Source: Bacteroidia bacterium (GTDB lineage: Bacteria > Bacteroidota > Bacteroidia > Bacteroidales > Prolixibacteraceae). From it: DNA of 43,351 nucleotides. The stretch covers positions 1 through 43,351 of the forward strand of contig JAPLDT010000008.1 of assembly GCA_026391315.1 (NCBI GenBank), in the 5' to 3' direction. The translations under genes were made by a program, and so were the position numbers. Below, one piece after another: positions 221 through 20,578 of the stretch (the first letter of the stretch is position 1; each line of letters begins with the position of its first letter). The notes beneath the pieces are model-generated. The model saw nothing but the letters and a program-made list of their open reading frames with translations, had not been told where the DNA came from and searched no databases.

Positions 221-1555
221 ATGAAAAAGAAGATAGAATTGGTACATGCAGGTTCGTTGTCTACTCAGAACACAGTCATCTCAATAATGATCATTGCATT
301 GTTGTTCTTTATTTTCGGTTTTACTACATGGATCAATGCGATTTTAATACCCTATTTTAAGATTTCATGTGAATTAAATAATGTCCAGTCTTTATTGGTA
401 GCTTTTGCCTTCTACATCGCCTATTTTGTGATGGCAATACCTTCCGCACACCTATTGGAAAAAGTTGGATTTAAAAAAGGGATAATGATTGGTTTCTGGA
501 TTATGGCCCTTGGCGCCCTTATTTTTGTACCTGCCGCTTTGACCAGGACTTATGGGATATTCCTTTTGGGGCTCTTCTCAATCGGGACAGGCCTGGCCAT
601 ATTGCAACCTGCTGCCAATACCTACATTACCATGATCGGTTCAAAAGAAAGGGCAGCACAGCGAATGAGCATTATGGGCGTTTGTAATAAAACTGCCGGG
701 ATCATTGCCCCGTTATTATTAGCTGCTGCAATACTAAGGCCAACTGATACTGAGTTATTTAAACAGTTACCGCTGATGGACGAAGTAACAAGAAATGCTG
801 CATTGGATGAATTGATACGACGGGTGATTGTCCCCTATGCCTGTATGGCAGTTGTTCTTTTCGGACTTGGATTGATGATCAGATATTCCATATTGCCGGA
901 AATAGATACCAACAATGAAAATCCTGCGTTGGCTGATGCAAATTCAGTTAAAACCAGTATCATTCAATTTCCGCATCTCATTCTTGGTGCTATCGCAATA
1001 TTTCTGCATGTGGGATCACAGGTTACCGGTATCAACACAATCATCGGATATGCCCGATCGCTGGACCTGCCATTACTGGAAGCAAAAGTATTCCCATCCT
1101 ATATCCTGGGCATAACGATGTCAGGGTTTTTACTGGGTATTGTCCTTATTCCAAAATTCATTAACCATCTCAATGTGCTGCGTGTATGTACAACATCGGC
1201 CATTGTGCTGACCCTGTTGTTTTTCATTGTGCGTGGCCAGGTAACTTTTCTTGGTCATACTGCTGCTCTGTCAATATGGTTTCTCGTGATATTGGGACTT
1301 TCCAATTCGTTGATGTGGTCGGCTATATGGCCACTGGCGCTCAATGGACTGGGACGGTTTACCAAAATGGGAGGATCAATTCTAATCATGGGTTTATGCG
1401 GAAGCGCTATCGTACCTCTTATATACGGATATTTCGCCGATCGTTACAATCCACACGCCGCATACTGGGTGCTGTTGCCCTGTTATATTTATCTGTTTTA
1501 TTATGCCTATTACGGTTATCGTGTTAAAAATTGGTCATTAAGAAAAGTGGTATAA
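221..1555 (+). CDS. FHS-type sugar permease (major facilitator superfamily)
   Basis: This 444-residue protein is an inner-membrane transporter of about 12 membrane helices in the FucP/GluP (fucose, glucose/galactose:H+ symporter) branch of the MFS. Helix 1 carries FFIFGFTTWINAILIPYFK-like sequence typical of the family, and the fourth-helix motif GLAILQPAANTYIT matches the family's G-x-x-x-LQ/E-x-AAN-P signature. The position equivalent to the E. coli FucP helix-4 glutamate is Gln, which is common in the glucose/galactose members. No Shine-Dalgarno sequence is present before the ATG; the leader is AT-rich as usual in Bacteroidota. It follows an oxidoreductase fragment and precedes the remnant of an amidohydrolase, suggesting an original amino-sugar or sugar-acid uptake operon. 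The substrate cannot be read from sequence. Confidence 0.88.
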   Translation: MKKKIELVHAGSLSTQNTVISIMIIALLFFIFGFTTWINAILIPYFKISCELNNVQSLLVAFAFYIAYFVMAIPSAHLLEKVGFKKGIMIGFWIMALGALIFVPAALTRTYGIFLLGLFSIGTGLAILQPAANTYITMIGSKERAAQRMSIMGVCNKTAGIIAPLLLAAAILRPTDTELFKQLPLMDEVTRNAALDELIRRVIVPYACMAVVLFGLGLMIRYSILPEIDTNNENPALADANSVKTSIIQFPHLILGAIAIFLHVGSQVTGINTIIGYARSLDLPLLEAKVFPSYILGITMSGFLLGIVLIPKFINHLNVLRVCTTSAIVLTLLFFIVRGQVTFLGHTAALSIWFLVILGLSNSLMWSAIWPLALNGLGRFTKMGGSILIMGLCGSAIVPLIYGYFADRYNPHAAYWVLLPCYIYLFYYAYYGYRVKNWSLRKVV

Positions 1556-1587
1556 GCATTAAACTGATAATAAATCGCAAGAAAATT

Positions 1588-1704
1588 ATGGGCTCAGATT
1601 GTAAATTCTTAAAAATATATAACGGGCTGGCAGTATCTCCATCGGGCATTATTAAAAATGCAACTGTTTTAGTAAGGTCCGGCATTATAGAGACAGTTTC
1701 TGAA
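1588..1704 (+). pseudogene. Amidohydrolase gene, 5' remnant (possibly NagA-like)
   Basis: From ATG 1588 the frame reads about 39 residues with the pattern KIYNGLAVSPSGIIKNATVL then VRSGIIETVSEG. This matches the N-terminal small beta domain of metal-dependent amidohydrolases (xI-xNG-x-VxxPxG-xI-xxxxVLVxxGxI-xxV), seen for example in GlcNAc-6-phosphate deacetylases and dihydroorotases. The frame then runs without a stop into an IS3-type transposase fragment, so the metal-binding HxH motif and the whole barrel are missing. The junction near 1705 is estimated from where the similarity changes; it could be off by about 20 bp. The gene followed the FHS permease closely (32 bp from its stop), so it was probably in the same operon. 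NagA identity is only a possibility suggested by the NagB-like gene at 10077. Confidence 0.55.
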
Positions 1705-2034
1705 GGCAACCTGAAAGTTTTTCAAAAAGCGATTGCAGACTTTGGAAAGCCAGAAATAGTAAACTCGGATCAAGGTTCTCAATGTACTTGTGAAGGCTGG
1801 GCTGAATATCTTACAAAACAAGGGATTATAATCAGCGTGGACGGAAAAGGAAGATGCCTGGATAACATTTGGATTGAAAGACTTTGGAGAACAATTAAAC
1901 AAGAGTATATTTACCTTAACCCAGCAGGAGACTGTAAAGTCCTTTTCAAGGGGTTAAGAAAGTTCCTTGATTATTGTTCCCATCGAAGCCTTGACCGTAG
2001 AACACCATTTGATTGGTACGAATGTGCAGCTTAG
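1705..2034 (+). mobile_element. IS3-family transposase (OrfB) C-terminal fragment
   Basis: The frame from about 1705 to the TAG at 2032-2034 reads the C-terminal half of an IS3-family DDE transposase. The second catalytic Asp is in NSDQGSQ and the catalytic Glu in DNIWIERLWRTIKQEYIYLN; the segment ends with the usual SHRSLDRRTPFDWY-type tail (equivalent to HKRPHQ...P). The first catalytic Asp region, the HTH-bearing OrfA and the left end of the element are absent, so it cannot transpose by itself. It is fused in frame to the remnant of an amidohydrolase, giving a chimeric open frame from 1531. The right end of the element lies somewhere between 2035 and about 2125; I cannot fix the terminal inverted repeat without the left end for comparison. 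Confidence 0.82.
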
Positions 2035-10821: not shown

Positions 10822-11571
10822 TCACTCCCTTCCGGTTAGCGCCAGCAGCCCATTGATCACAGTCAGCGGATGCGTCGGATTTCCTGCAATATAGAGATCT
10901 ACTTTGTGGCTTTCAAGAAAACTGCGGTCCAGGGCGGGGGAGCCTTCGAAAATGCCACCGCTGATGGCATCTGTGCCAACAAGTACAACCATCTTAGGAT
11001 CCGGGGTCGCATCATAACAGATCTGCAATGGCTCGGCCATGTTGGCAGTGATCGGACCGGTTATGACGATTCCGTCGGCATGCCGGGGGGATGCAACGAA
11101 CTCAATTCCAAACCTGCTCATGTCGAACTGCACATTGTTCGCGGCATTGAGCTCCCATTCGCAGCTGTTGTCGCCGCCGGCAGATATCTGCCTGAGTTTC
11201 AATGAGCTTCCAAAAAGAGTCTTGAACTCCTTCGCGATCAGATCTTTGTCCAGGTCGATGGGCTGATCAACGCCTTCTTTGACAATCAACCGTTCCCGAA
11301 CATTGGTGGAAAGCTTGTAATCCGAAGTAAAAACAATCTTCTGAGGGAAAATGCGTGCACACTCCCCGCAAAAGGTGCATTTCCCAAGATCAATGGATAC
11401 TGGCGCGGTTGAAATGGCGCCAGTCGGACAACAATTTACCAATGAGGTTTCGTCTACCTTTTCCGCAGATATCACCGGTCGTCCCCTGAAAATCCCGGGT
11501 ACTTTGGCATTCCTTACATCAGGAATAAACTGTTTGCCCTGATGATACCAAATCTTAATATTACTGAACAT
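10822..11571 (-). CDS. HyfI/NuoB-like small subunit with N-terminal ferredoxin domain, degenerate in FeS ligands
   Basis: A 249-residue protein fusing a ferredoxin-like domain (about 25-85) to a NuoB/HyfI-type domain (about 120-249). In the ferredoxin part, motif 2 keeps C65-x2-C68-x2-C71 but has Phe75 for its fourth Cys, while motif 1 keeps only its last Cys (C48 in CCPTGAI). Because clusters are shared between motifs, one [4Fe-4S] is complete (C48, C65, C68, C71) and the other lost all four ligands. In the NuoB-like part, of four proximal-cluster cysteines only Cys137 remains; the others align with Asp134, Asp201 (in GTDAISGG) and Asn231 (in AGNPTHP). The remaining fold text (SPRHADGIVITGPITANMAE) is well conserved. 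It is separated from the large subunit gene by 467 bp. It should be peripheral on the cytoplasmic face of the complex. Confidence 0.8.
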   Translation of the reverse strand: MFSNIKIWYHQGKQFIPDVRNAKVPGIFRGRPVISAEKVDETSLVNCCPTGAISTAPVSIDLGKCTFCGECARIFPQKIVFTSDYKLSTNVRERLIVKEGVDQPIDLDKDLIAKEFKTLFGSSLKLRQISAGGDNSCEWELNAANNVQFDMSRFGIEFVASPRHADGIVITGPITANMAEPLQICYDATPDPKMVVLVGTDAISGGIFEGSPALDRSFLESHKVDLYIAGNPTHPLTVINGLLALTGRE

Positions 11572-11660
11572 ATTTTCAATTTTATATTTTTAACCACAAA
11601 GGACCCCAAGTACGACACAAAGGAACACAAAGACTTAAAATATAGATAGTTGCGTTCTTT

Positions 11661-11689
11661 TAGTCTCTCCGTCCCTTAGTCTCTCCGTC
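11661..11689. repeat. Direct repeat TAGTCTCTCCGTC, two copies
   Basis: Identical 13-mers at 11661-11673 and 11677-11689. A related TTTTCTCCGTCTC phrase occurs at the break point of the ORF6N remnant near 7220. Confidence 0.7.
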
Positions 11690-11817
11690 TCTTCATCATC
11701 TTTGCTTCTCATTTTCATTCTTCTCTCTTCGCTAACGAACCTGAATTCCGTCCGATCCCAATGCCATCTCATTTTCAGACATTTTATCGCGGACGGTTGC
11801 CATGCGTTATCCATCTA

Positions 11818-11872
11818 CCCCGGGTTCCGCTTCGCTCCACCCGGGGCTATTGATATTTAATCCCTCCGGGAT
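11818..11872. repeat. REP-like palindromic element
   Basis: CCCCGGGT (11818-11825) and ACCCGGGG (11839-11846) form a perfect 8-bp stem with a 13-base loop; 13 bases later ATCCC-TCC-GGGAT (11860-11872) forms a second small hairpin. It is GC-rich in an AT-leaning setting. I recall similar dispersed elements in Bacteroidota intergenic DNA, but only one copy is in this window. Confidence 0.6.
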
Positions 11873-12010
11873 ATAACCCCAAAACTACGATCACTCACAG
11901 AGTCAAGCCCGATCCCCGCTTAATGGTTTCAATTACTCTTTTCCAATCATTTTCACATTTTCACATTTCCCAATTTTCACATTTCTCCCAGTCCCCCTGT
12001 CTCCGTCCTC

Positions 12011-12038
12011 CATGCTCTCTGCCCCATGCTCTCTGCCC
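12011..12038. repeat. Perfect 14-bp tandem repeat next to the large-subunit stop
   Basis: CATGCTCTCTGCCC occurs twice back to back (12011-12024, 12025-12038) and ends directly at the stop codon of the large-subunit gene (complement of 12039-12041). Confidence 0.75.
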
Positions 12039-13541
12039 TCACAGATCATGCCCGCAATACGAAAGATTAAAGCTCTTGTTGCAGATTGGAAAATCGGATA
12101 TTTCGTTGTTTCGTACCGACAAAGCAAGCGCCATCCAGTTATGGAAGGAGGGATCTTTGATTTTGTAATGAACCAATTCTCCTTTGGATCCAGTTATGGC
12201 ACAGTGACAGATCTCGCCACGCCATCCTTCTACTAGCGTGAGCGTAAAAAGGTTTTCACCCGGGGATGAAAGTTCACTGATTTCACTCTTGGCCGGAAGT
12301 TCGGCGATCAGCTTTCTCAGGTATCCTATTGACTGCATAACCTCATTTTTGCGTAGCTGAACGCGCGAATAGACATCTCCGTGACGTTTTACTTTTGCTT
12401 CGTGCTGAAGTTCGGGATACAAACTGTGGGGATGGGAGGTACGTATATCCCTTATGACTCCACTGGTTCGTGCTGCCATGCCAACTGCACCAATGGCCGT
12501 TGCATCTTCCATGGAAACCACGCCTGTTCTTTCAAACCGCGAAAGGGCGCTGGGCAAACTGAACAGTTGGGTATTCATCTCAACGAAATCACGCTCGTAA
12601 GTATCCAATATCTGGATAAGTCTTGCCGCCAATTCCGGTGTAAAGGGAAAACGATCAAGTCCCGGGCGGATCAAGCCCTTTGAAAGCCTGTTTCCGCACC
12701 ATTCCTGCATGAAATTGATAATGGGGGTACGTAGCCTGCCAAAGACAGAACTGCCCAGCTGGTAGGCAATATCGGTGCATATAGCGCTCAGATCACCGGT
12801 ATGAACGGCAATTCGCTCCAGTTCGAGTGCAATGGTACGTGAATAGTCAATGTCCCTTGTGGTTTTGAAGCCACAGAGGCTTTCCCATATCTGGGCAAAG
12901 GCGGTCGCATGACCGACAACAGTATCCCCGGCAATGTTTTCGGCCAGTGTAACCAGTTGCGAAAGATTCTGCTTTTCCAAAAACAGCTTTTCGATGCCCC
13001 TATGTTGGTAACCAAGCTGAATTTCCAGGTGCAGGATCTGCTCACCATTGCAAATAAACCTGAAATGACCTGGTTCTATGACTCCCGCATGTATTGGACC
13101 AACCCCAACTTCGTGAAGCTCTTCACTATCAATAGAATAGAAGGGGTAATTGGCAATGGTTGATTGCTTGTCAGCACGGTCGAAGGGGTACCTTACCGGC
13201 TTAAGCCATGGGTGATCGCTGTAGTTCAATCCGAAATTTTCATGAATTTCACGCTCGAATTTTTCGAAGCAGAGCAGTCTGGCCGTAAAGGATGGCAATA
13301 CATCTGTCGGTAGCACTTTGCAGGATGAAAGATGAATCAGATGTTTTACATCGTCGGCAATGCAACAGATTAGCTGTAGTTGCTTTCCATTGGCAACGCC
13401 ATAATAGTTAACGCAATGTCTGTCAGAGGTATCTGCAATAAGCCCGGTATTTACGTCCAGAAACGATCCGTAACTCAATTCAGGAATTGATGAGAGCGGA
13501 ACCGATTGATTATTTTTTATGATGATTGTCTGCATAATCAT
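12039..13541 (-). CDS. HyfG-like large subunit (NuoC/NuoD fusion) without NiFe ligands
   Basis: A 500-residue protein: residues about 60-125 resemble the NuoC-type 30-kDa domain (EKFEREIHENFGLNYSDHPW), and 140-500 the NuoD/hydrogenase large subunit fold (GVGPIHAGVIEPGHFRF, LEIQLGYQHRGIEKLF, ERIAVHTGDL, GVVSMEDATAIG). The L1 Cys pair of NiFe hydrogenases (ER-x-CG-x-C) is replaced by E201-N-I-A204-G-D-T207. At the C-terminus the L2 pair (DPC-x2-C) is replaced by FNLSYCGHDL, with a lone Cys496 out of register. The enzyme thus cannot bind a NiFe centre. It overlaps the upstream HyfF-like gene by four bases (ATGA), with ATG 13541 chosen; ATG 13535 is two codons in. It forms the peripheral arm with the 10822-11571 product. 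Confidence 0.85.
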   Translation of the reverse strand: MIMQTIIIKNNQSVPLSSIPELSYGSFLDVNTGLIADTSDRHCVNYYGVANGKQLQLICCIADDVKHLIHLSSCKVLPTDVLPSFTARLLCFEKFEREIHENFGLNYSDHPWLKPVRYPFDRADKQSTIANYPFYSIDSEELHEVGVGPIHAGVIEPGHFRFICNGEQILHLEIQLGYQHRGIEKLFLEKQNLSQLVTLAENIAGDTVVGHATAFAQIWESLCGFKTTRDIDYSRTIALELERIAVHTGDLSAICTDIAYQLGSSVFGRLRTPIINFMQEWCGNRLSKGLIRPGLDRFPFTPELAARLIQILDTYERDFVEMNTQLFSLPSALSRFERTGVVSMEDATAIGAVGMAARTSGVIRDIRTSHPHSLYPELQHEAKVKRHGDVYSRVQLRKNEVMQSIGYLRKLIAELPAKSEISELSSPGENLFTLTLVEGWRGEICHCAITGSKGELVHYKIKDPSFHNWMALALSVRNNEISDFPICNKSFNLSYCGHDL

Positions 13542-14965
13542 TGAGGTAAGAGTATGAGGCTCTCTTTGATAAGTTGCACAAAAATTGGTGGAGGATTCAA
13601 TCCCAGATAGACTGCCGTTGCGAGCAACAGAAATTGAGAGAGTGATTCCCAGGGAGAGGTTCTTGCCACCCTCGAATCATCGAATCCTTCAGCTGGAACA
13701 AAGAGAACCTTGAAAATGTTTTTTCCAAACGACCAGATAATCATGGTCAATAGCAGCAAAACAGCGATGAGGACAAAGATCTGCTTCGCATCAAACAATG
13801 ATTTAAAAATCAGGAATTCGCTCACAAAAAGCCCGGATGGCGGCATCGCTGCTGAACTGATAAAACCTAACAGCAATACCATTGCCCCGGTCGGATTGTA
13901 TTTGAAATAGTTGCCGATGTGGGTAATGCTTTTGTTTTGAAATACGCGGTAAAGTTGGTTGTATTGGAAGAAGAGGCTAGATTTCACAAACGCATGCAGT
14001 ACAATGTGCAGAATGGCAGCGTAGTAACCAATTCCACCCGCAGCTACGCCAAGCATTACGATTCCCATGTGTTCGATGCCGGAGTAGGCGAACATCCGTT
14101 TGACGTTCTTAACCTTTAACATGTATACTGTCGCGACGAACAACGAAAGGAATGCCGCAATTCCAACCACCAGTTTGGCCCAATGAAGCAGTGGAGTGTT
14201 GGCAATGACGATGTAAAACCTGAATATTCCTACAAATCCAAGGTTCATCAAGACACTTGCCATCAGCGCTCCTGCCGGTGCTGGTGCGGTATCCTTGGCG
14301 TCAATGCCTGCCGTAAACATGGGAACCAGTCCCAGCTTGGCAGTGAACCCTGTAAAAATGAAGAGAAAGGCCATTTGCAGCCAGACTGGATTTAGTTCCT
14401 TGCTTTTTGCCAGCAAGTTACTGAAAGATAGGTCGTCAGACCCGGCGTGTTGAAGTGAAAGACTAAGAAAAAGAATGCCGATGAAAATGAAGGTGATGCT
14501 AATTGCGCAGATGAAGACATATTTCCAGGTACCCTCAAGTGCCAACTTGTTTCGGTGGTGATAAATCAGGGCCGAGGCACTCAAGGTTGTGATCTCCGTA
14601 AAAATCCAGGTTACCGCGATGTGGTTGGAAAGATATCCTGCACTGATGGCCATGATCAGCAAAACCAACGAACCAATGTAGATCGATCTTGACCGCGGGG
14701 GTTCGTAATGGTTCTCAATGTAAATGTAGCTGTGCAATGCAGCCGGAACAGCGATGATACTCAAAGTAACCAGAAGAAGAATGCCCAACGAGTCATAAGT
14801 GAAATAAACAGCATCGGTGGTGCCGAAATGCAGGCAGGCCTGCGTAGTAAACCAACCTTGCCAAACCAGGAATAATCCAAGCAAGGAGTAGACCAGCCGT
14901 TTATCCCGCAGCAAAAAAAGGCTTATAACAATCGCAACAGAAACTATTAAGTAGGTGATAACCAT
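13538..14965 (-). CDS. HyfF-like proton-translocating membrane subunit
   Basis: A 475-residue membrane protein with about 14 hydrophobic helices, of the NuoN/HyfF antiporter-like type. Helix-5 glutamate is in VTWIFTEITTLSASAL, and the helix-7 lysine is in TAKLGLVPMFTAGIDAKD. The helix-8 lysine found in NuoL/M is Asn here (SVLMNLGFVGIFRF), as is usual for HyfF. It also has the conserved MFAYSGIEHMGIVMLGVA. It is probably one of three ion-translocating subunits in the complex. Its gene lies 18 bp after the HyfE-like gene and overlaps the large-subunit start. Confidence 0.87.
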   Translation of the reverse strand: MVITYLIVSVAIVISLFLLRDKRLVYSLLGLFLVWQGWFTTQACLHFGTTDAVYFTYDSLGILLLVTLSIIAVPAALHSYIYIENHYEPPRSRSIYIGSLVLLIMAISAGYLSNHIAVTWIFTEITTLSASALIYHHRNKLALEGTWKYVFICAISITFIFIGILFLSLSLQHAGSDDLSFSNLLAKSKELNPVWLQMAFLFIFTGFTAKLGLVPMFTAGIDAKDTAPAPAGALMASVLMNLGFVGIFRFYIVIANTPLLHWAKLVVGIAAFLSLFVATVYMLKVKNVKRMFAYSGIEHMGIVMLGVAAGGIGYYAAILHIVLHAFVKSSLFFQYNQLYRVFQNKSITHIGNYFKYNPTGAMVLLLGFISSAAMPPSGLFVSEFLIFKSLFDAKQIFVLIAVLLLLTMIIWSFGKNIFKVLFVPAEGFDDSRVARTSPWESLSQFLLLATAVYLGLNPPPIFVQLIKESLILLPQ

Positions 14966-14983
14966 TGATTTCGTTTGTTTTGA

Positions 14984-15616
14984 TTAGTAATCTTTCAAAT
15001 TGCTCAACTGATCGACATCTACATCCTTGAAGACATCACCAATTTTGTTCATGAAAATTCCCAAAATGAGCACACTGGCAAAAATATCCAGCATGATACC
15101 CAGGTTGACAAGCAGTGGCATTTCGTTGCCAATGGCCAGAGAAAGGACAAAAACGCCATTTTCTATCACCATGTAACCCATCACATGGGTAATGATTTTT
15201 CGGCGGGTAGCAATAAGATACAAGCCAAAAAAGAGCGTTGACAGCGCCACAACGAAGAAGATTTTGTCGAGGTGATCATCTTTAATAACGGTAGCTATCA
15301 GTATGTTGACAACTACAATTGAAGTGGTTATGACAAGAGAGACAAAATTGGGCAAAAAGGGCTCCGCCTCCCGGGTAATGTTGTTTCGTTTAAGCAGATA
15401 ACTCAGAAAAATAGGTACCGCCAGAGATTTGAAGACGATGGTTTCCAGAAGGATAAAGGCAAGGTTAAAAGGATCAATCTTGCTCAGTTGAAAAAATACA
15501 ACGAAGAAGAGCAACACCCCCTGAAGCGCCAGCACTTTGATGTAGGTCATCAGCCTGTTGGCGATGGCCATGTAAAACAAAGTGATGATAAAAATAATCA
15601 AGAGTACATGTATCAT
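14984..15616 (-). CDS. HyfE-like membrane subunit
   Basis: A 210-residue integral membrane protein with about seven helices. The C-terminal part (VMGYMVIENGVFVLSLAIGN then MPLLVNLGIMLDIFASVLIL) contains the NuoK-like helix with a buried Glu and is typical of HyfE. In the complex it should occupy the NuoK/NuoJ-like position joining the antiporter subunits to the HyfC-like anchor. Short spacers (23 bp upstream, 18 bp downstream) place it inside one operon. Confidence 0.85.
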   Translation of the reverse strand: MIHVLLIIFIITLFYMAIANRLMTYIKVLALQGVLLFFVVFFQLSKIDPFNLAFILLETIVFKSLAVPIFLSYLLKRNNITREAEPFLPNFVSLVITTSIVVVNILIATVIKDDHLDKIFFVVALSTLFFGLYLIATRRKIITHVMGYMVIENGVFVLSLAIGNEMPLLVNLGIMLDIFASVLILGIFMNKIGDVFKDVDVDQLSNLKDY

Positions 15617-15639
15617 ATTGTCTGACTATTATTTAACCG

Positions 15640-16545
15640 TTAAACAAATTTTTGTAAAATAAGCAGTACACCAAAAAATATGAGCAGGCTTACCGATGTT
15701 AGCACTACGATGAACTGCGGATTATGGCTCATTCGGAACCTTGCCATAAACGACTCGATCAAACCAATGGCAACGGCCATCAAAAACTGAATGGCAAAAA
15801 ATGCTGGAATGGCATATTGATAAGGGATGACGCCAATAAACAGGTTCACGATCAAAGCCCCATATAGCGCAAATTTAAGGTATCCGGCCGTTAGGATCAA
15901 TCCCAGATCGAATCCGCTGTTGTCGAGGATCATCACTTCATGGACCATGGTCAGTTCGAGGTGGGTCTTGGGATCGTCGATGGGCATACGGCTGTTTTCG
16001 ATCATGGCAATCATCAAAAGTACGAAAGTTGCCAGGGCTGCCAGGGCATAGCTAATCTGAGATCCAATGTGCAGTGAGGCAAAAATCTCCTGAAATGAGG
16101 TGTGACCTGAAAGTAGCGCCAATGAGCCCATTAGGATAAAGAAGGCAGGCTCTGCGAACATCGAGTAGAGGGCTTCGCGGCTGGCGCCCATCCCTTCGAA
16201 ACTGCTGCCGGTATCCAAAGCGGAAATGATGCTGAAGAATTTCCCCAAAGCCAAAACATAAGCGAAAAAAATGAAATCTCCATTGAAACTTAGTACGCCG
16301 GGCGATTTACCAAACGGAACTACCATCAAGGCCATCACAACAGACGCAAAATAGACTGTGGGAGCCAGTTGAAAAATGAAACTGGTGGTCTCACTGTAGA
16401 CTGCACCCTTGCGGAATAACCTAACAACATCCCTGACAGGTTGCAATATCCCGGGACCTTTACGACCTGAAGCCAAACTCTTGGTCCGGATGACAATACC
16501 GGTAAAAAAGAGGGCTGCAATAAGGTTTAAAAAGATACTCAGCAT
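15640..16545 (-). CDS. HyfC/NuoH-like membrane anchor subunit
   Basis: A 301-residue protein with about eight helices. Conserved family segments are visible: GRKGPGILQPVRDVVRLFRK near residues 27-46, SFEGMGASREALYS around 114-127, and ENSRMPIDDPKTHLELTMVH around 181-200, rich in the Glu/Asp/Arg residues of the NuoH 'E-channel'. This subunit links the peripheral arm to the membrane arm and forms the quinone-like cavity in complex I. Its gene begins 2 bp after the stop of the second HyfB-like gene. Confidence 0.9.
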   Translation of the reverse strand: MLSIFLNLIAALFFTGIVIRTKSLASGRKGPGILQPVRDVVRLFRKGAVYSETTSFIFQLAPTVYFASVVMALMVVPFGKSPGVLSFNGDFIFFAYVLALGKFFSIISALDTGSSFEGMGASREALYSMFAEPAFFILMGSLALLSGHTSFQEIFASLHIGSQISYALAALATFVLLMIAMIENSRMPIDDPKTHLELTMVHEVMILDNSGFDLGLILTAGYLKFALYGALIVNLFIGVIPYQYAIPAFFAIQFLMAVAIGLIESFMARFRMSHNPQFIVVLTSVSLLIFFGVLLILQKFV

Positions 16546-16547
16546 GG

Positions 16548-18575
16548 TTATAGAAGTTTAAATATATCAATAAAGGATTCCAAATTCCTGTATAGCAAAG
16601 GGATACCCAATACCGTCAGGATAAAAATGATTCCGTACAAAATATAGAATTGAAGTTTACCGTTGTTCAGGAAGACAAACCTCCCCATAAAACGCTTATT
16701 TAATTTTAGAACACGGTCAATCAATCCCTTTTCAAGTTTATCGTAGGGCTGGGTATGGTATCTCGCTTCTGAAGGGAAAACACCATGAACGATTGCCTCT
16801 TCTTTGTTGACTATCAGGACAGGTGCGAATAGCTTACTGTAGGTACGTACAAAGGAGCTTGCGGTGTACTGATGTTTAGAAGTTGAGGCCACATAACCGC
16901 AGCCCCAGGTTGGGCCAACTTCCACTCTCCTCTTTTTAAGCAGGTTCTGTCTGATAAAATAGAGTCCGATTACCAAGGCAACCAATATCCATGATGCCCA
17001 ACTGATCGGCTGTAAGGCCGTGAAAACACTATTCTGTGGAGTATTTGTCAGAATTTGTACTGTTCCTGTAAAAAGAGAGACAGGCTCTGCCAATAGGTGG
17101 ATAAACAACATAGGAAAAATGCCTACCAGGATGATGACAAGGGCCAAAATATAAGAAGGGAGGAGTTGTATAAACTTAACCTCTTGGCATTCTGCATGGA
17201 GTGTATGACGGGCTGTTCCCAAAAAAACTGTTCCAAATGCCTTGGTAAAACAAATCATGGCCAGACCACCAATGGCTACCAGTCCGATGGTGGAGAAAAT
17301 GGCTGCGAGGAGCGAAAATAGCGTTCCATCTGAGAGCCAGCTGTATAGCCCGGTATAGATAATGAATTCAGAGATAAAGCCGTTAAAGGGCGGAATTCCG
17401 CAAATGGCAATGGCAGCAATTAAAAAGAGCATGGCAGTCTGTGGCATCTTCTTTATCACTCCGCCCAATTTCTCAATTTCCATAGTATGCGTTGCCTGGT
17501 AAACATTTCCGGCAGTATAGAAGAGCAGGGATTTGAAGAGTGCATGATTTAAGGTATGGAGCAATGCACCTGCATATCCAAGCGTTGCTAGTGTTGGATT
17601 ACCCATACCTGTTCCAATGGCCCCTAAGCCTATTCCAATTCCAATGATCCCTATATTTTCGATGCTATGGTAGGCGAGTAGTTTTTTGAGGTTGTGCTGT
17701 ATAATGGCCAGCATCACTCCGTACAATCCGGAAAGCACCGAGACAATCAGAATTAGGAAACCTACCGCAACATAGTCTGTTTTGATAATCAACAACATAC
17801 GTAAAATTCCGAATATTCCAGCCTTGATGATAACTCCCGACATCATACCCGATACATGCGCAGGTGCGGCAGGATGTGCATATGGAAGCCATGTGTGAAA
17901 AGGAACAAATCCGGCTTTGATCGCAAAGGCAATAAAAAAACAGAGAAATAAAATCAATGAAGCCATTCCCGGTAATGAAGACGAATAAGTGGTGATGGCC
18001 TGAAAGTCATAGCTATTCGTTTTGTTAATGACCCAAAGAAAGCCAACAATCAGGAACACGATAGAAAAATGTGCCTGTATCAGGTAATTTATACCGGCTT
18101 TGATGGTGACAGGATTTTCATGCTCAAAAATGATAAGAACGAAAGAGGTCAAAGCCAAAATTTCCCAGGCGATCAGGAAAACAAAACTGTTCTGGATCCC
18201 GCAAACACTGATGATAGAAGCATGTTGCAGCAAAAATGCAAAACTGTGCAGGGTAAGGCTGTTGGTTCTCTTCCTGTAGCTCTTCATGTAGGAATATCCA
18301 TACAATGCCCCAGTTAAAAAAACCAGGTTGATGATCAAAATAAACCAACCCGACAATGCATCTATCCTTATGGGGATAATACCTGTGACATAACTTCCCG
18401 GTAGGGAGATGGAAACAGGATTCCCTGTCAGGCTTTGTACAGCCATGTATCCTGATATCATTACATTAATTGTCAACAAAACCAGTGTCAGTACTCCCTT
18501 CAACCTAACTTTCAGGAAAGGAAGAAGAAGTAATCCGACAAACGGTATCAGGACAAATGTGGTAATCAGGTTCAT
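16548..18575 (-). CDS. HyfB-like antiporter subunit (second of a tandem pair)
   Basis: A 675-residue NuoL/Mrp-type subunit with about 16 helices. The key residues of this family are visible: helix-5 Glu in WEILALTSFVL, helix-7 Lys in IKAGFVPFHTWLPYAHPAAP, helix-8 Lys in SGVIIKAGIFGILRML, and the ENIGIIGIGIGLGAIG segment. The C-terminal WGCGYVASTSKHQYTASSF is characteristic of HyfB. The neighbouring upstream gene encodes a close homologue, so this is a tandem duplication. The start ATG overlaps the upstream stop (ATGA at 18572-18575). Confidence 0.9.
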   Translation of the reverse strand: MNLITTFVLIPFVGLLLLPFLKVRLKGVLTLVLLTINVMISGYMAVQSLTGNPVSISLPGSYVTGIIPIRIDALSGWFILIINLVFLTGALYGYSYMKSYRKRTNSLTLHSFAFLLQHASIISVCGIQNSFVFLIAWEILALTSFVLIIFEHENPVTIKAGINYLIQAHFSIVFLIVGFLWVINKTNSYDFQAITTYSSSLPGMASLILFLCFFIAFAIKAGFVPFHTWLPYAHPAAPAHVSGMMSGVIIKAGIFGILRMLLIIKTDYVAVGFLILIVSVLSGLYGVMLAIIQHNLKKLLAYHSIENIGIIGIGIGLGAIGTGMGNPTLATLGYAGALLHTLNHALFKSLLFYTAGNVYQATHTMEIEKLGGVIKKMPQTAMLFLIAAIAICGIPPFNGFISEFIIYTGLYSWLSDGTLFSLLAAIFSTIGLVAIGGLAMICFTKAFGTVFLGTARHTLHAECQEVKFIQLLPSYILALVIILVGIFPMLFIHLLAEPVSLFTGTVQILTNTPQNSVFTALQPISWASWILVALVIGLYFIRQNLLKKRRVEVGPTWGCGYVASTSKHQYTASSFVRTYSKLFAPVLIVNKEEAIVHGVFPSEARYHTQPYDKLEKGLIDRVLKLNKRFMGRFVFLNNGKLQFYILYGIIFILTVLGIPLLYRNLESFIDIFKLL

Positions 18576-20578
18576 GAAATAATATTTAAGATTGATAGGA
18601 TGATCAGGGCAAGAATAAATACAATTCCATACAAAACATAGGATTGTATTCGTCCATTCTGGACAAAACTAAAGTAATTGGCCGATTGTACCAGCCAATC
18701 TGTTGAAGGTTTGATCAATTTGTACTCGAAAAAATCCTGGTAATGCGAGATGTAGGATTTCCCTGCGGGATGTATTTCTCCCTTTTTCAACTCTTCGAAC
18801 TCCTTTTTTTCAATGAGCAGCGCATTAAAAATCTTTCCAAGAGGCTTGGAAAAGGATTTTCCGGTGTATTGCTGCCTGTTGTTTGGGGCTACATAGCCAC
18901 ATCCCCACGTAGCGCCAGAATTCACATATGCTTTTTTCATGAGCAGGGAACGAGCAATCCAGGTAGCTGCAACAATTCCGGTGAGTAACAGAAAGTAAAA
19001 GCTGATGTTGGCTGTTGTTTTGCCGATACCCTCCAGAATGGCAGGTTCTGCATCCATGGAATGCAGGATGGACAACTGGCTTCCGACAATTTTCATGTAA
19101 AACTGTGGAAGAAGGGCCACACTCAGCATTACGGCAATGATCAGGTATTGCGGTATGAGCATTATGGATGAAACTTCCTGCGGTTTGTGGGTTAGCTGTG
19201 TACGGGGTTGGCCCAAAAAGATGGTACCAAAAGCCTTGGTAAAGGTAAGAACCGAAAGTCCTCCTATGATACTTAATCCTGCTAAAACGAGAACGTACAG
19301 TATGATTTGGCTTATACTGCTGGTATGAATACCCTCAATCAATCCATTGTAGATTAAAAATTCGGATACAAAACCATTGAAAGGAGGAAGTCCCCCAATC
19401 GCAAGCGCTCCAACAAGAAAGAGTGCCCCTGTTTTAGGCATTGATTTGATTAGTCCTCCCAGATTTTCCATGTTTAGCGTGTGAGTTTGCTGGTAGATTG
19501 CCCCTGCCGAATAAAAGAGCAAAGATTTGAACAACGAGTGATTCAAAACATGCAACAAGGCGCCTCCAAAACCAAGGTAGAACATCAAGGGTGAATTGTT
19601 TCCTATGCCCATCAGTCCTATCCCTATTCCGATGCCTATTATTCCAATATTTTCGATGGTACAATAGGCCAGCATTCGTTTGAAGTCGCGGTGTACAGCG
19701 GCATTCAGGATCCCGTACAAACCTGACAATACGGAGAGCGTAAGCACCATCTCCCCAAGCAGAAGAAAATCACTTTTCAGGAAGGTGATCATGCGCAGAA
19801 TACCGTAAATTCCAAGCTTTACCATCACCCCAGACATGATTCCGGAGATATGCGCAGGTGCAGCAGGGTGGGCATGGGGCAGCCAGCTGTGAAATGGAAT
19901 AAATCCGGCTTTGATACCAAATCCTGTAAAGAAGAGCAGAAACAACCAAAGGTTACGGTTCGTCTGAAAATAGGTATTCAGCGCATCATAACTGAAAGAT
20001 CCCGAATAATGATAGACCCAGATGAATCCGATGGTCAGGAATGTCACCCCAATGTGCATCTGAACAAAATAGTTCAATGCAGCTTTGAAGGTTTTTGGAT
20101 TTTCATGATCAAATAACACCAACAACATGGAGGTGAGCGACATGATCTCCCAAACAACCAAAAAGGCGAATCCATTCTGAACCATACAAACAAAGAGCAT
20201 GGATAGGTGAAAAAAGAGAAAAAAGATCCAATGCAATGATATCCTGTTCCTTGATTGTTCGTATTTTTTCAAATATCCCTTTCCGTAAAAGAACCCGGTT
20301 AGAACTGTAAAATTGATGATCAATATAAACCAGGCAGAGAGACCGTCAATCTTTAACAACACCTCTCCGGCAAAACTCCCAAACTGAAGAGAGAGTTCGA
20401 TGGGATGATTCAACAATGCCTGAACTGCCAGCCAGCTGCTTGACAATGAGGTAAACAAAATTGCAAACAAGGTAATGACAAAACCAATTTTTTGAGGCAT
20501 TGTCAAAATAAAAATAAAAGCCAGAAAAGTAAACAGAATGGTCCCGTTCAGCATCACGGCATTGCCTAAAATATCCAC
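18572..20578 (-). CDS. HyfB-like antiporter subunit (first of a tandem pair; first gene of the cluster)
   Basis: A 668-residue homologue of the following gene, with the same landmarks: WEIMSLTSMLLVLFDHEN (helix-5 Glu), IKAGFIPFHSWLPHAHPAAP (Lys), SGVMVKLGIYGILRMI (Lys), and the C-terminal WGCGYVAPNNRQQYTGKSF. The listed start is GTG 20578; an in-frame ATG at 20554 would remove eight residues and is also possible, since the first hydrophobic helix follows it. E. coli Hyf has one HyfB plus shorter HyfD and HyfF, whereas here the third antiporter is a second full-length HyfB. No clear TAnnTTTG promoter was found in the 469-bp region upstream. Confidence 0.88.
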   Translation of the reverse strand: MDILGNAVMLNGTILFTFLAFIFILTMPQKIGFVITLFAILFTSLSSSWLAVQALLNHPIELSLQFGSFAGEVLLKIDGLSAWFILIINFTVLTGFFYGKGYLKKYEQSRNRISLHWIFFLFFHLSMLFVCMVQNGFAFLVVWEIMSLTSMLLVLFDHENPKTFKAALNYFVQMHIGVTFLTIGFIWVYHYSGSFSYDALNTYFQTNRNLWLFLLFFTGFGIKAGFIPFHSWLPHAHPAAPAHISGIMSGVMVKLGIYGILRMITFLKSDFLLLGEMVLTLSVLSGLYGILNAAVHRDFKRMLAYCTIENIGIIGIGIGIGLMGIGNNSPLMFYLGFGGALLHVLNHSLFKSLLFYSAGAIYQQTHTLNMENLGGLIKSMPKTGALFLVGALAIGGLPPFNGFVSEFLIYNGLIEGIHTSSISQIILYVLVLAGLSIIGGLSVLTFTKAFGTIFLGQPRTQLTHKPQEVSSIMLIPQYLIIAVMLSVALLPQFYMKIVGSQLSILHSMDAEPAILEGIGKTTANISFYFLLLTGIVAATWIARSLLMKKAYVNSGATWGCGYVAPNNRQQYTGKSFSKPLGKIFNALLIEKKEFEELKKGEIHPAGKSYISHYQDFFEYKLIKPSTDWLVQSANYFSFVQNGRIQSYVLYGIVFILALIILSILNIIS

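What the first reader, a model, noticed from the sequence alone, without database searches (positions are those of the whole stretch)
10822..20578. Seven-gene Hyf/complex-I-like complex that has lost its hydrogenase centre
The large subunit at 12039-13541 has Ala204 and Thr207 for the first NiFe cysteine pair and Ser494/Gly497 for the second, yet the fold text is well conserved and all membrane subunits are intact with their key Lys and Glu. No hydrogenase maturation genes occur nearby. Complexes of this kind (energy-converting-hydrogenase-related, Ehr) are known in other phyla but their electron donor and acceptor are not established. A Bacteroidota version with three antiporter-like subunits may couple an unknown redox or binding reaction to ion transport.
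Basis: partly seen in the sequence, partly recalled or inferred. Interest (0 to 1): 0.85.

Follow-up and report, generated by a model that had tools for sequence, protein, structure and literature searches.

The report
Complex-I-like ion pump, electron wire cut
A conserved bacterial relative of respiratory complex I and hydrogenase keeps all its ion-pumping parts but has lost the hydrogenase centre and also most of the iron-sulfur 'wire' that should bring electrons to it, so it probably moves ions in a way that is not ordinary electron-driven pumping.

Summary
The seven ORFs (10822-20578, minus strand) form an intact HyfB-HyfB-HyfC-HyfE-HyfF-HyfG-(ferredoxin+HyfI) operon. All four [NiFe] cysteines are replaced in the window and in 83 related large subunits. 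This places the complex in the known Ehr family, which is apart from HycE/HyfG and NuoD in a tree.

The small subunit has also lost the proximal (N2/G1) [4Fe-4S] cluster: its ligands are now Asp134, Cys137, Asp201 and Asn231, and the two Asp and the Asn are near-invariant in 79 sequences. One of the two ferredoxin clusters is gone too; one four-cysteine set remains (79 of 79). Wired sister complexes in other Bacteroidota, and 6 of 7 plasmid Ehr read, keep the proximal cluster, so its loss is derived. Purifying selection is strong, the ion-pathway Lys/Glu residues are conserved, and the complex-I quinone His/Tyr are absent.

Best reading: an Ehr variant with a broken electron wire, most likely a multi-subunit cation/proton transporter whose peripheral arm gates it through a bound ligand and the leftover cluster (inference, 0.4). 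The main rival is a substitute cofactor at the vacated site. A new variant of a known kind; my open-access searches found no description.

The parts
18572..20578 (-). HyfB-like antiporter-like subunit, copy 2 (first gene of the operon)
   Evidence: Best NCBIfam hit hydrogenase 4 subunit B, 502.6 bits, under the curated cut-off of 667; PF00361; channel residues E144, K223, K254, E309, H347, K351, E406 conserved in 38/38
16548..18575 (-). HyfB-like antiporter-like subunit, copy 1
   Evidence: Hydrogenase 4 subunit B 481.9 bits, under the cut-off; PF00361; E138, K220, K251, E306, K348, E403 conserved in 49/49
15640..16545 (-). HyfC/NuoH-like subunit linking the peripheral and membrane arms
   Evidence: PF00146 E 7.9e-36; E124, E132, E183, E197, E203, E264 in 66/66, all also Glu in E. 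coli HyfC/HycD
14984..15616 (-). HyfE-like membrane subunit (NuoK-related C-terminal part)
   Evidence: NCBIfam hydrogenase 4 membrane subunit E 2e-19, under the cut-off; PF00420 25.8 bits, just under its cut-off of 26.1; E152 in 69/69
13538..14965 (-). HyfF-like antiporter-like subunit
   Evidence: PF00361 E 4.6e-41; E124, E144, K148, K210, K289, K328, E383 conserved in 80-81 of 81
12039..13541 (-). HyfG/NuoCD-like large subunit, no [NiFe] ligands; ends at Leu500, aligned with the Arg at which HycE is cut (cut site recalled)
12930..12932 (-). Ala204 in place of the first [NiFe] Cys
12921..12923 (-). Thr207 in place of the second [NiFe] Cys
12060..12062 (-). Ser494 in place of the third [NiFe] Cys
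12051..12053 (-). Gly497 in place of the fourth [NiFe] Cys
10822..11571 (-). Fused ferredoxin (HyfH-like) + small subunit (HyfI/NuoB-like)
11359..11430 (-). The one remaining four-Cys set: Cys48, Cys65, Cys68, Cys71 (inner, N6b-like set by recalled complex-I assignment)
   Evidence: 79 of 79 each; the other set is absent
11170..11172 (-). Asp134 in place of the first proximal-cluster Cys
   Evidence: 79/79 Asp here; 13/13 Cys in wired Bacteroidota sisters
11161..11163 (-). Cys137, the only retained proximal-cluster Cys
   Evidence: 71/79; A, G, T or Y in 8
10969..10971 (-). Asp201 in place of the third proximal-cluster Cys
   Evidence: 78/79 Asp, one Glu; 13/13 Cys in sisters
10879..10881 (-). 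Asn231 in place of the fourth proximal-cluster Cys (GCPP to GNPxHP)
   Evidence: 78/79 Asn, one Tyr; 13/13 Cys in sisters

Best explanation
It is a derived branch of the Ehr family (hydrogenase-related relatives of complex I) in which the electron path has been cut at three places while the ion machinery was kept. Shown by sequence: no [NiFe] ligands; no complex-I quinone His/Tyr; no four-Cys proximal cluster; only one of two ferredoxin clusters; ion-path Lys/Glu present; strong purifying selection; derived from wired relatives. Inferred: a single cluster one step too far from the old active-site cavity cannot feed it. The complex therefore most likely works as a multi-subunit cation/proton exchanger or pump of Mrp-like membrane design. 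Its peripheral arm acts as a gate, through a ligand or metal in the conserved Asp134/Asp201/Asn231 and large-subunit pocket, with the leftover [4Fe-4S] cluster as a redox, oxygen or iron sensor or a structural element.
For: Large-subunit ligands lost in 84/84. Proximal ligands replaced by Asp, Asp, Asn in 79, 78 and 78 of 79, which is fixed replacement rather than drift, against Cys in 13/13 sister sequences. Four Cys of one ferredoxin set in 79/79. Quinone His and Tyr positions (recalled) are Ile155 and Gly205 in 85/85. Membrane Glu/Lys invariant or nearly so. dN/dS 0.013-0.069 in the 10 of 35 comparisons where estimable. On the large-subunit tree the loss of the proximal cluster needs two changes in all (this clade and Allomeiothermus), and the sister L114 keeps all three clusters. 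The ferredoxin loss arose more than once: 3 changes; one clade rejected with p-AU 8e-5, the group being named after the tree was seen. In FHL the relay distances are all under 14 A (PMC9474812, passages), so removing one step should break transfer. Mrp shows that this membrane module can work without a peripheral arm (PMC7684303, passages).
Against: The retained, invariant cluster suggests that some electron-transfer role is still selected. Asp can ligate Fe-S clusters in other proteins (recalled), so an unusual cluster is not excluded. The models are poor exactly there: residues 135-147 of the small subunit and 148-158, 176-178 and 479-500 of the large subunit have pLDDT under 50. No distance was measured, no transport assay is known to me, and I did not look for expression data. 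A peripheral arm kept under such strong constraint is more than a plain antiporter needs.
Confidence: 0.4

Rival explanations
1. Still a redox pump. The Asp134/Cys137/Asp201/Asn231 site binds a substitute cofactor (an Asp-ligated cluster or a mononuclear metal). An external ferredoxin reduces the remaining [4Fe-4S] cluster and the substitute cofactor passes the electron to an unknown substrate in the old NiFe/quinone cavity.
For: Near-invariant polar replacements; invariant remaining cluster set; the sisters keep a full relay; extra near-invariant Cys gained in the large subunit of this clade (Cys43, 60, 445, 447).
Against: Cys137 is lost in 8 of 79; Asn is not a usual cluster ligand (recalled); the outer ferredoxin cluster is also lost, so the input side is shortened as well.
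Confidence: 0.33
2. An inorganic-carbon or anion uptake system. The complex drives or catalyses vectorial CO2 hydration (as DAB or NDH-1MS do) or makes the ion gradient for a SulP-type transporter.
For: In wired Bacteroidota Ehr loci a SulP transporter gene lies beside or inside the operon in 7 of 15, from three families of genomes, once fused to a PTS EIIA domain and placed between the large- and small-subunit genes. DAB2 couples a NuoL-like subunit to non-redox CO2 hydration (PMC13144422, abstract).
Against: No SulP or EIIA gene among 1051 ORFs of 69 loci near the window's type; no DabA in the operon; SulP substrates here are unknown; five of the seven SulP cases come from one family of genomes.
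Confidence: 0.12
3. A classical wired Ehr: electrons still reach the cavity and reduce a quinone or an unknown acceptor there, as first proposed for Ehr.
For: Family membership and the fold of both subunits.
Against: Proximal cluster and one ferredoxin cluster missing; quinone His/Tyr missing.
Confidence: 0.12
4. A non-functional relic that is decaying.
For: Loss of catalytic ligands; in three MAGs the genes are dispersed and one HyfC copy carries a TGA; one more MAG (L071, G438) gave no small-subunit match at all.
Against: dN/dS of 0.07 or less where estimable; long invariant stretches over 54-81% identity; no stop in 83 of 83 large and 73 of 73 small subunits extracted, these being chosen for coverage over 85%; dispersed genes still keep the replacement residues.
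Confidence: 0.02
5. An active hydrogenase with unusual ligands.
For: HyfG-like fold.
Against: No NiFe Cys, no HypD in the genome, no C-terminal extension for a maturation protease, no four-Cys proximal cluster.
Confidence: 0.01

Closest known systems
[quoted passage not shown] not readable here, known through papers citing them)
   Same: Group-4-hydrogenase-like layout without [NiFe] Cys; large-subunit C-terminus S-Y-x-G-x-D-L in most; clusters with plasmid Ehr of Rhizobium, Azospirillum, Paraburkholderia, Rhodococcus, Methylocalor, Variovorax
   Different: Proximal cluster ligands lost and replaced; one of two ferredoxin clusters lost; two HyfB copies in many members
Cluster-keeping ('wired') Ehr of other Bacteroidota (L114-L127, L128/L159)
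   Same: Same gene order, fused ferredoxin+small subunit; 38-53% large-subunit identity
   Different: Keep the proximal cluster (14 of 14 in L114-L127; and L159); 12 of 15 have an HTH-PTS EIIA gene in front, 7 of 15 a SulP gene
E. coli formate hydrogenlyase / hydrogenase 4 (HycE, HyfG)
   Same: Fold and subunit kinds
   Different: No NiFe site, no G1 cluster, no C-terminal extension, no HycB/FdhF partner in the operon
MBS of Pyrococcus (sulfane sulfur reductase)
   Same: A complex-I relative that lost NiFe ligands
   Different: MBS keeps two NiFe-position Cys and a three-Cys proximal cluster that is its active site (PMC7684303, passages); here both are gone
Respiratory complex I (NuoBCDHKLMN)
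   Same: NuoD/B/H/L-like fold
   Different: No N2, no quinone His/Tyr, no NADH module in the operon; the same genome has two separate canonical complex I loci
Mrp antiporters and DAB/MpsAB
   Same: Non-redox use of NuoL/M-like subunits
   Different: Mrp lacks a peripheral arm; DAB has DabA instead of a large/small subunit pair

Membership tests
Ehr | Large subunit lacks all four [NiFe] Cys | tested here: met
   84/84; aligned with HycE/HyfG
Ehr | Group 4 hydrogenase-like membrane and peripheral subunits in one operon | tested here: met
Ehr | Large subunit groups with other Ehr, apart from HycE/HyfG and NuoD | tested here: met
   50 Ehr rows together at 100/99 in a 54-row tree with only two hydrogenases and two NuoD as outsiders
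Ehr | Intact Fe-S relay to the cavity (present in the wired sisters read here; whether the original definition requires it could not be read) | tested here: not met
   sisters keep it
Group 4 [NiFe] hydrogenase | Two CxxC motifs in the large subunit | tested here: not met
Group 4 [NiFe] hydrogenase | Hyp maturation genes in the genome | tested here: not met
   No HypD in G000 (listed as 100% complete); 12 of 14 carriers, G000 included, lack it
Respiratory complex I | N2 cluster ligated by NuoB | tested here: not met
Respiratory complex I | Quinone-binding His and Tyr of the 49 kDa subunit (positions recalled) | tested here: not met
   Ile155 and Gly205 in 85/85 (alignments)
MBS | Two remaining NiFe-position Cys and a three-Cys proximal cluster | tested here: not met
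   definition from PMC7684303 passages
Mrp antiporter | No peripheral hydrogenase-like arm | tested here: not met
   Large and small subunits present
Mrp antiporter (works like) | Na+/H+ or K+/H+ exchange by the membrane arm | not testable with these tools
   Only the ion-path residues could be checked
DAB / MpsAB | DabA carbonic-anhydrase-like subunit in the operon | tested here: not met
   None among the seven Pfam-scanned proteins

The most novel reading that the evidence does not exclude
A full complex-I-type machine (peripheral arm, HyfC connector, three antiporter-like subunits) that is no longer driven by electron transfer: the redox wire was lost stepwise and the vacated cluster site was rebuilt as a conserved Asp/Asp/Asn pocket, so ion movement is powered or gated by ligand binding or ion exchange, with the last [4Fe-4S] cluster as a sensor.
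Probability: 0.35. Interest if true: 0.85.

Novelty: new variant of a known kind. Interest (0 to 1): 0.62.

Why it matters
How a change in the peripheral arm of complex I drives proton pumping far away in the membrane is a long-standing question. A natural relative that keeps the whole coupling path but has lost the redox wire would separate coupling from electron transfer. It would be a ready-made test object, with fully wired sisters at 38-53% identity in the same phylum as controls. It also changes how 'hydrogenase 4' genes in Bacteroidota should be read: in this family they are no sign of hydrogen metabolism and, in this clade, perhaps not even of electron transfer.

Tried and rejected
A conserved co-located dehydrogenase or partner gene: clustering of 1051 ORFs in 69 context loci gave no non-operon family in more than 8 loci. 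Those in 5-8 loci looked mostly like neighbourhoods of related genomes (an RNase-Y-like and a ZapA-like set and an IspG-like gene in Paludibacter-type loci; these names are my reading of the sequences and come from no family search). A CRP/FNR-type regulator gene lies directly in front of the first HyfB gene, on the other strand, in 4 loci (L029, L040, L075, L077; only the L029 protein was Pfam-scanned). An earlier count said five, counting L072, where another ORF lies between.

A new metal site from Cys gained in the large subunit (Cys43, 60, 255, 445, 447): Cys255 is also present in HycE, L114 already has Cys43, and no coordinates of the model were available to measure distances, so this was left open.

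Decay or pseudogene: rejected. Frameshift between large and small subunit genes (467 bp gap): the gap is non-coding with short direct repeats. In 82 loci with both genes on one strand the gap runs from an 8-bp overlap to 954 bp, median 20; in L044 the small-subunit gene lies apart on the other strand.

Rows dropped: one search took loci with over 85% query coverage and over 45% identity, which dropped L015 (37%) and truncated loci, and removed duplicates. One search kept 80 of 307 related stretches. In one search, 52 of 54 rows had a proximal-cluster state (not L128, L111) and 46 a ferredoxin state (not L127, L128, L111 or the five short-NuoB rows). Of 7 genomes searched for the small subunit, G438 (L071) gave none.

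Best NCBIfam hits of all seven proteins are under their curated cut-offs. Promoter scan: 15 found against 20.2 expected, no information.

Literature: nine searches of an open-access library. I opened 13 papers, in passages or abstract only; most listed papers were not opened. Three were off the point for Ehr (PMC11540253, PMC10927898, PMC13332983) and PMC11287216 matched only by chance words. None of the passages seen describes an Ehr lacking the proximal cluster, or Ehr in Bacteroidota. The two founding Ehr papers could not be read (one not held; the other not tried), so absence from print is not shown.
Full report
WHAT IS THERE. By NCBIfam and Pfam they are HyfB-like, HyfB-like, HyfC/NuoH-like, HyfE-like, HyfF-like, HyfG/NuoCD-like, and a fused ferredoxin+HyfI/NuoB-like protein; the best NCBIfam hits all stay under the curated cut-offs. 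The same genome holds two ordinary complex I loci elsewhere, so this is not its NADH dehydrogenase. The nearest named relatives are mostly Bacteroidota MAGs and isolates (Prolixibacteraceae, Paludibacter, Petrimonas, Breznakibacter, Flavihumibacter; 80 loci kept of 307 matches).

THE ELECTRON WIRE. This is the new part. In MbhJ and HycG four Cys hold the proximal cluster (alignments). In the window's small subunit these positions are Asp134, Cys137, Asp201 and Asn231. In 79 distinct small subunits of the clade (window plus 78) they are Asp in 79, Cys in 71, Asp in 78 and Asn in 78. In 13 small subunits of other Bacteroidota (L114-L126) positions 134, 201 and 231 are Cys in 13 of 13. The ferredoxin part has four Cys (48, 65, 68, 71) in 79 of 79, which is one cluster's set, while the other set is gone. 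E. coli HycF/HyfH and Variovorax keep both sets. By the complex-I ligand assignment that I recall, the kept set is the inner one (N6b). So the relay has lost its outer ferredoxin cluster, its proximal cluster and its end point. The quinone-site His and Tyr of complex I (positions recalled) are Ile155 and Gly205 here in 85 of 85 (alignments).

EVOLUTION. A 54-row large-subunit tree puts 50 Ehr rows together (100/99), apart from HycE/HyfG and from two NuoD. The proximal-cluster-less Bacteroidota rows form one clade (27 rows, 99/96); its sister L114 (100/100) has all three clusters. Scored on this tree, proximal-cluster loss needs two changes over 52 rows (this clade and Allomeiothermus, whose place is unsure because of a long branch) and ferredoxin-cluster loss three over 46 rows. 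Holding L115-L117 (one ferredoxin set, proximal cluster kept) together with the wire-less clade is rejected with p-AU 8e-5, with the caveat that this group was chosen after seeing the tree. So the wire was lost in steps, and the outer cluster more than once. Of seven plasmid Ehr read, those of Variovorax, Methylocalor, Rhodococcus, Paraburkholderia, Rhizobium and Azospirillum keep the proximal cluster; Allomeiothermus has lost it with other residues.

SELECTION AND DISTRIBUTION. dN/dS was estimable in 10 of 35 gene comparisons and lies between 0.013 and 0.069; the rest were saturated in dS. Of 41 genomes (own included, the rest relatives), 13 have the large subunit at E of 1e-40 or better. Of 395 genomes drawn over the phylum (own included), 17 have a match at 1e-45, and 15 of these 17 keep the proximal cluster; so in an even sample of the phylum the wire-less form is the rarer one. 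In three MAGs (isolate names suggest termite guts, my guess) the small-subunit and HyfC genes lie on other contigs than each other and not beside the large-subunit gene in the stretches fetched, yet the small subunits keep Asp, Asp, Asn and the four Cys. One MAG (G438) gave no small-subunit match.

ION PATH. The Glu and Lys of the antiporter-like subunits and the Glu series of HyfC are conserved: for example HyfC E124, E132, E183, E197, E203 and E264 in 66 of 66. The HyfB duplication is present in the window and many relatives, while others show one copy.

NEIGHBOURS. No gene family is conserved beside the operon in more than 8 of 69 context loci close to the window's type (53 with at least 2 kb upstream and 56 with at least 2 kb downstream). 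In the wired sisters, however, an HTH_17+PTS_EIIA_2 gene lies in front of the first HyfB in 12 of 15 loci, with the EIIA Pro-His-Pro motif present in all 12. A SulP transporter gene lies beside or inside the operon in 7 of 15, from three families of genomes (five of the seven from one). In L159 the SulP protein carries STAS and EIIA domains and its gene lies between the large- and small-subunit genes (three EIIA and four SulP proteins were Pfam-scanned, the others assigned by BLASTP). Neither is found near the operon in the 69 context loci (0 hits in 1051 ORFs). This links Ehr to anion transport or PTS-Ntr-type control, and the link was lost or never made in the wire-less clade.

HOW IT MAY WORK. 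FHL relay steps are all under 14 A (PMC9474812, passages). If the proximal step is removed, a jump from the inner ferredoxin cluster to the old cavity should be too long (inference; not measured here). Mrp antiporters and DAB show that NuoL-type subunits can work without redox chemistry (PMC7684303 passages; PMC13144422 abstract). I therefore favour a gated ion exchanger or pump (0.4), with a substitute cofactor as the main rival (0.33). The retained invariant cluster is the strongest point against a fully redox-free reading.

KNOWN OR NEW. Ehr complexes are known and their function is not established (PMC10432482, PMC4378227, PMC6349859, PMC7304191; passages). Those passages speak only of the lost NiFe ligands. 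In Geobacter all Ehr subunits were more abundant on formate than in the hydrogen-containing conditions (PMC7894505, passages). I found no text on loss of the proximal cluster in the searches listed, but the two founding papers were not read. I file the window as Ehr by its NiFe loss, layout and tree, and as a new variant by its broken relay.

Noticed in passing
L144, L146, L150, L153, L155, L158, L159 (wired Ehr loci of other Bacteroidota): A SulP-family transporter gene lies beside or inside the Ehr operon in 7 of 15 loci; in L159 it is fused to STAS and PTS EIIA domains and sits between the large- and small-subunit genes.
   Followed up: partly
L145-L147, L149, L150, L152-L158: A PtsN-like EIIA domain fused to a helix-turn-helix (about 223 aa) is encoded in front of the first HyfB gene in 12 of 15 wired Ehr loci, a possible link to PTS-Ntr ion homeostasis control.
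   Followed up: partly
window 12039-13541, residues Cys43, Cys60, Cys445, Cys447 of the large subunit: Cys that are near-invariant in the wire-less clade and mostly absent in the sisters; whether they meet in space is unknown.
   Followed up: partly
L102 (Allomeiothermus silvanus plasmid): A second, apparently independent loss of the proximal-cluster Cys, with different replacement residues.
   Followed up: no
L084, L089, L093 (Bacteroidales MAGs): The complex's genes (small subunit and HyfC, as searched) are dispersed rather than in one operon; the HyfC copy on G435 has one in-frame TGA.
   Followed up: partly
L100 (Variovorax sp. PBL-E5 plasmid): Two different Ehr-like operons lie near each other on one plasmid, with universal stress protein and spermidine synthase genes between them.
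   Followed up: no
window 11572-12038: A 467-bp non-coding gap with short direct repeats between the large- and small-subunit genes; the median gap over 82 loci is 20 bp.
   Followed up: partly
window 1531-2034: ORF whose first part reads like the start of an amidohydrolase and whose rest reads like the end of an IS3-type transposase; probably an insertion-element fragment (read from the ORF translation, no family search).
   Followed up: no
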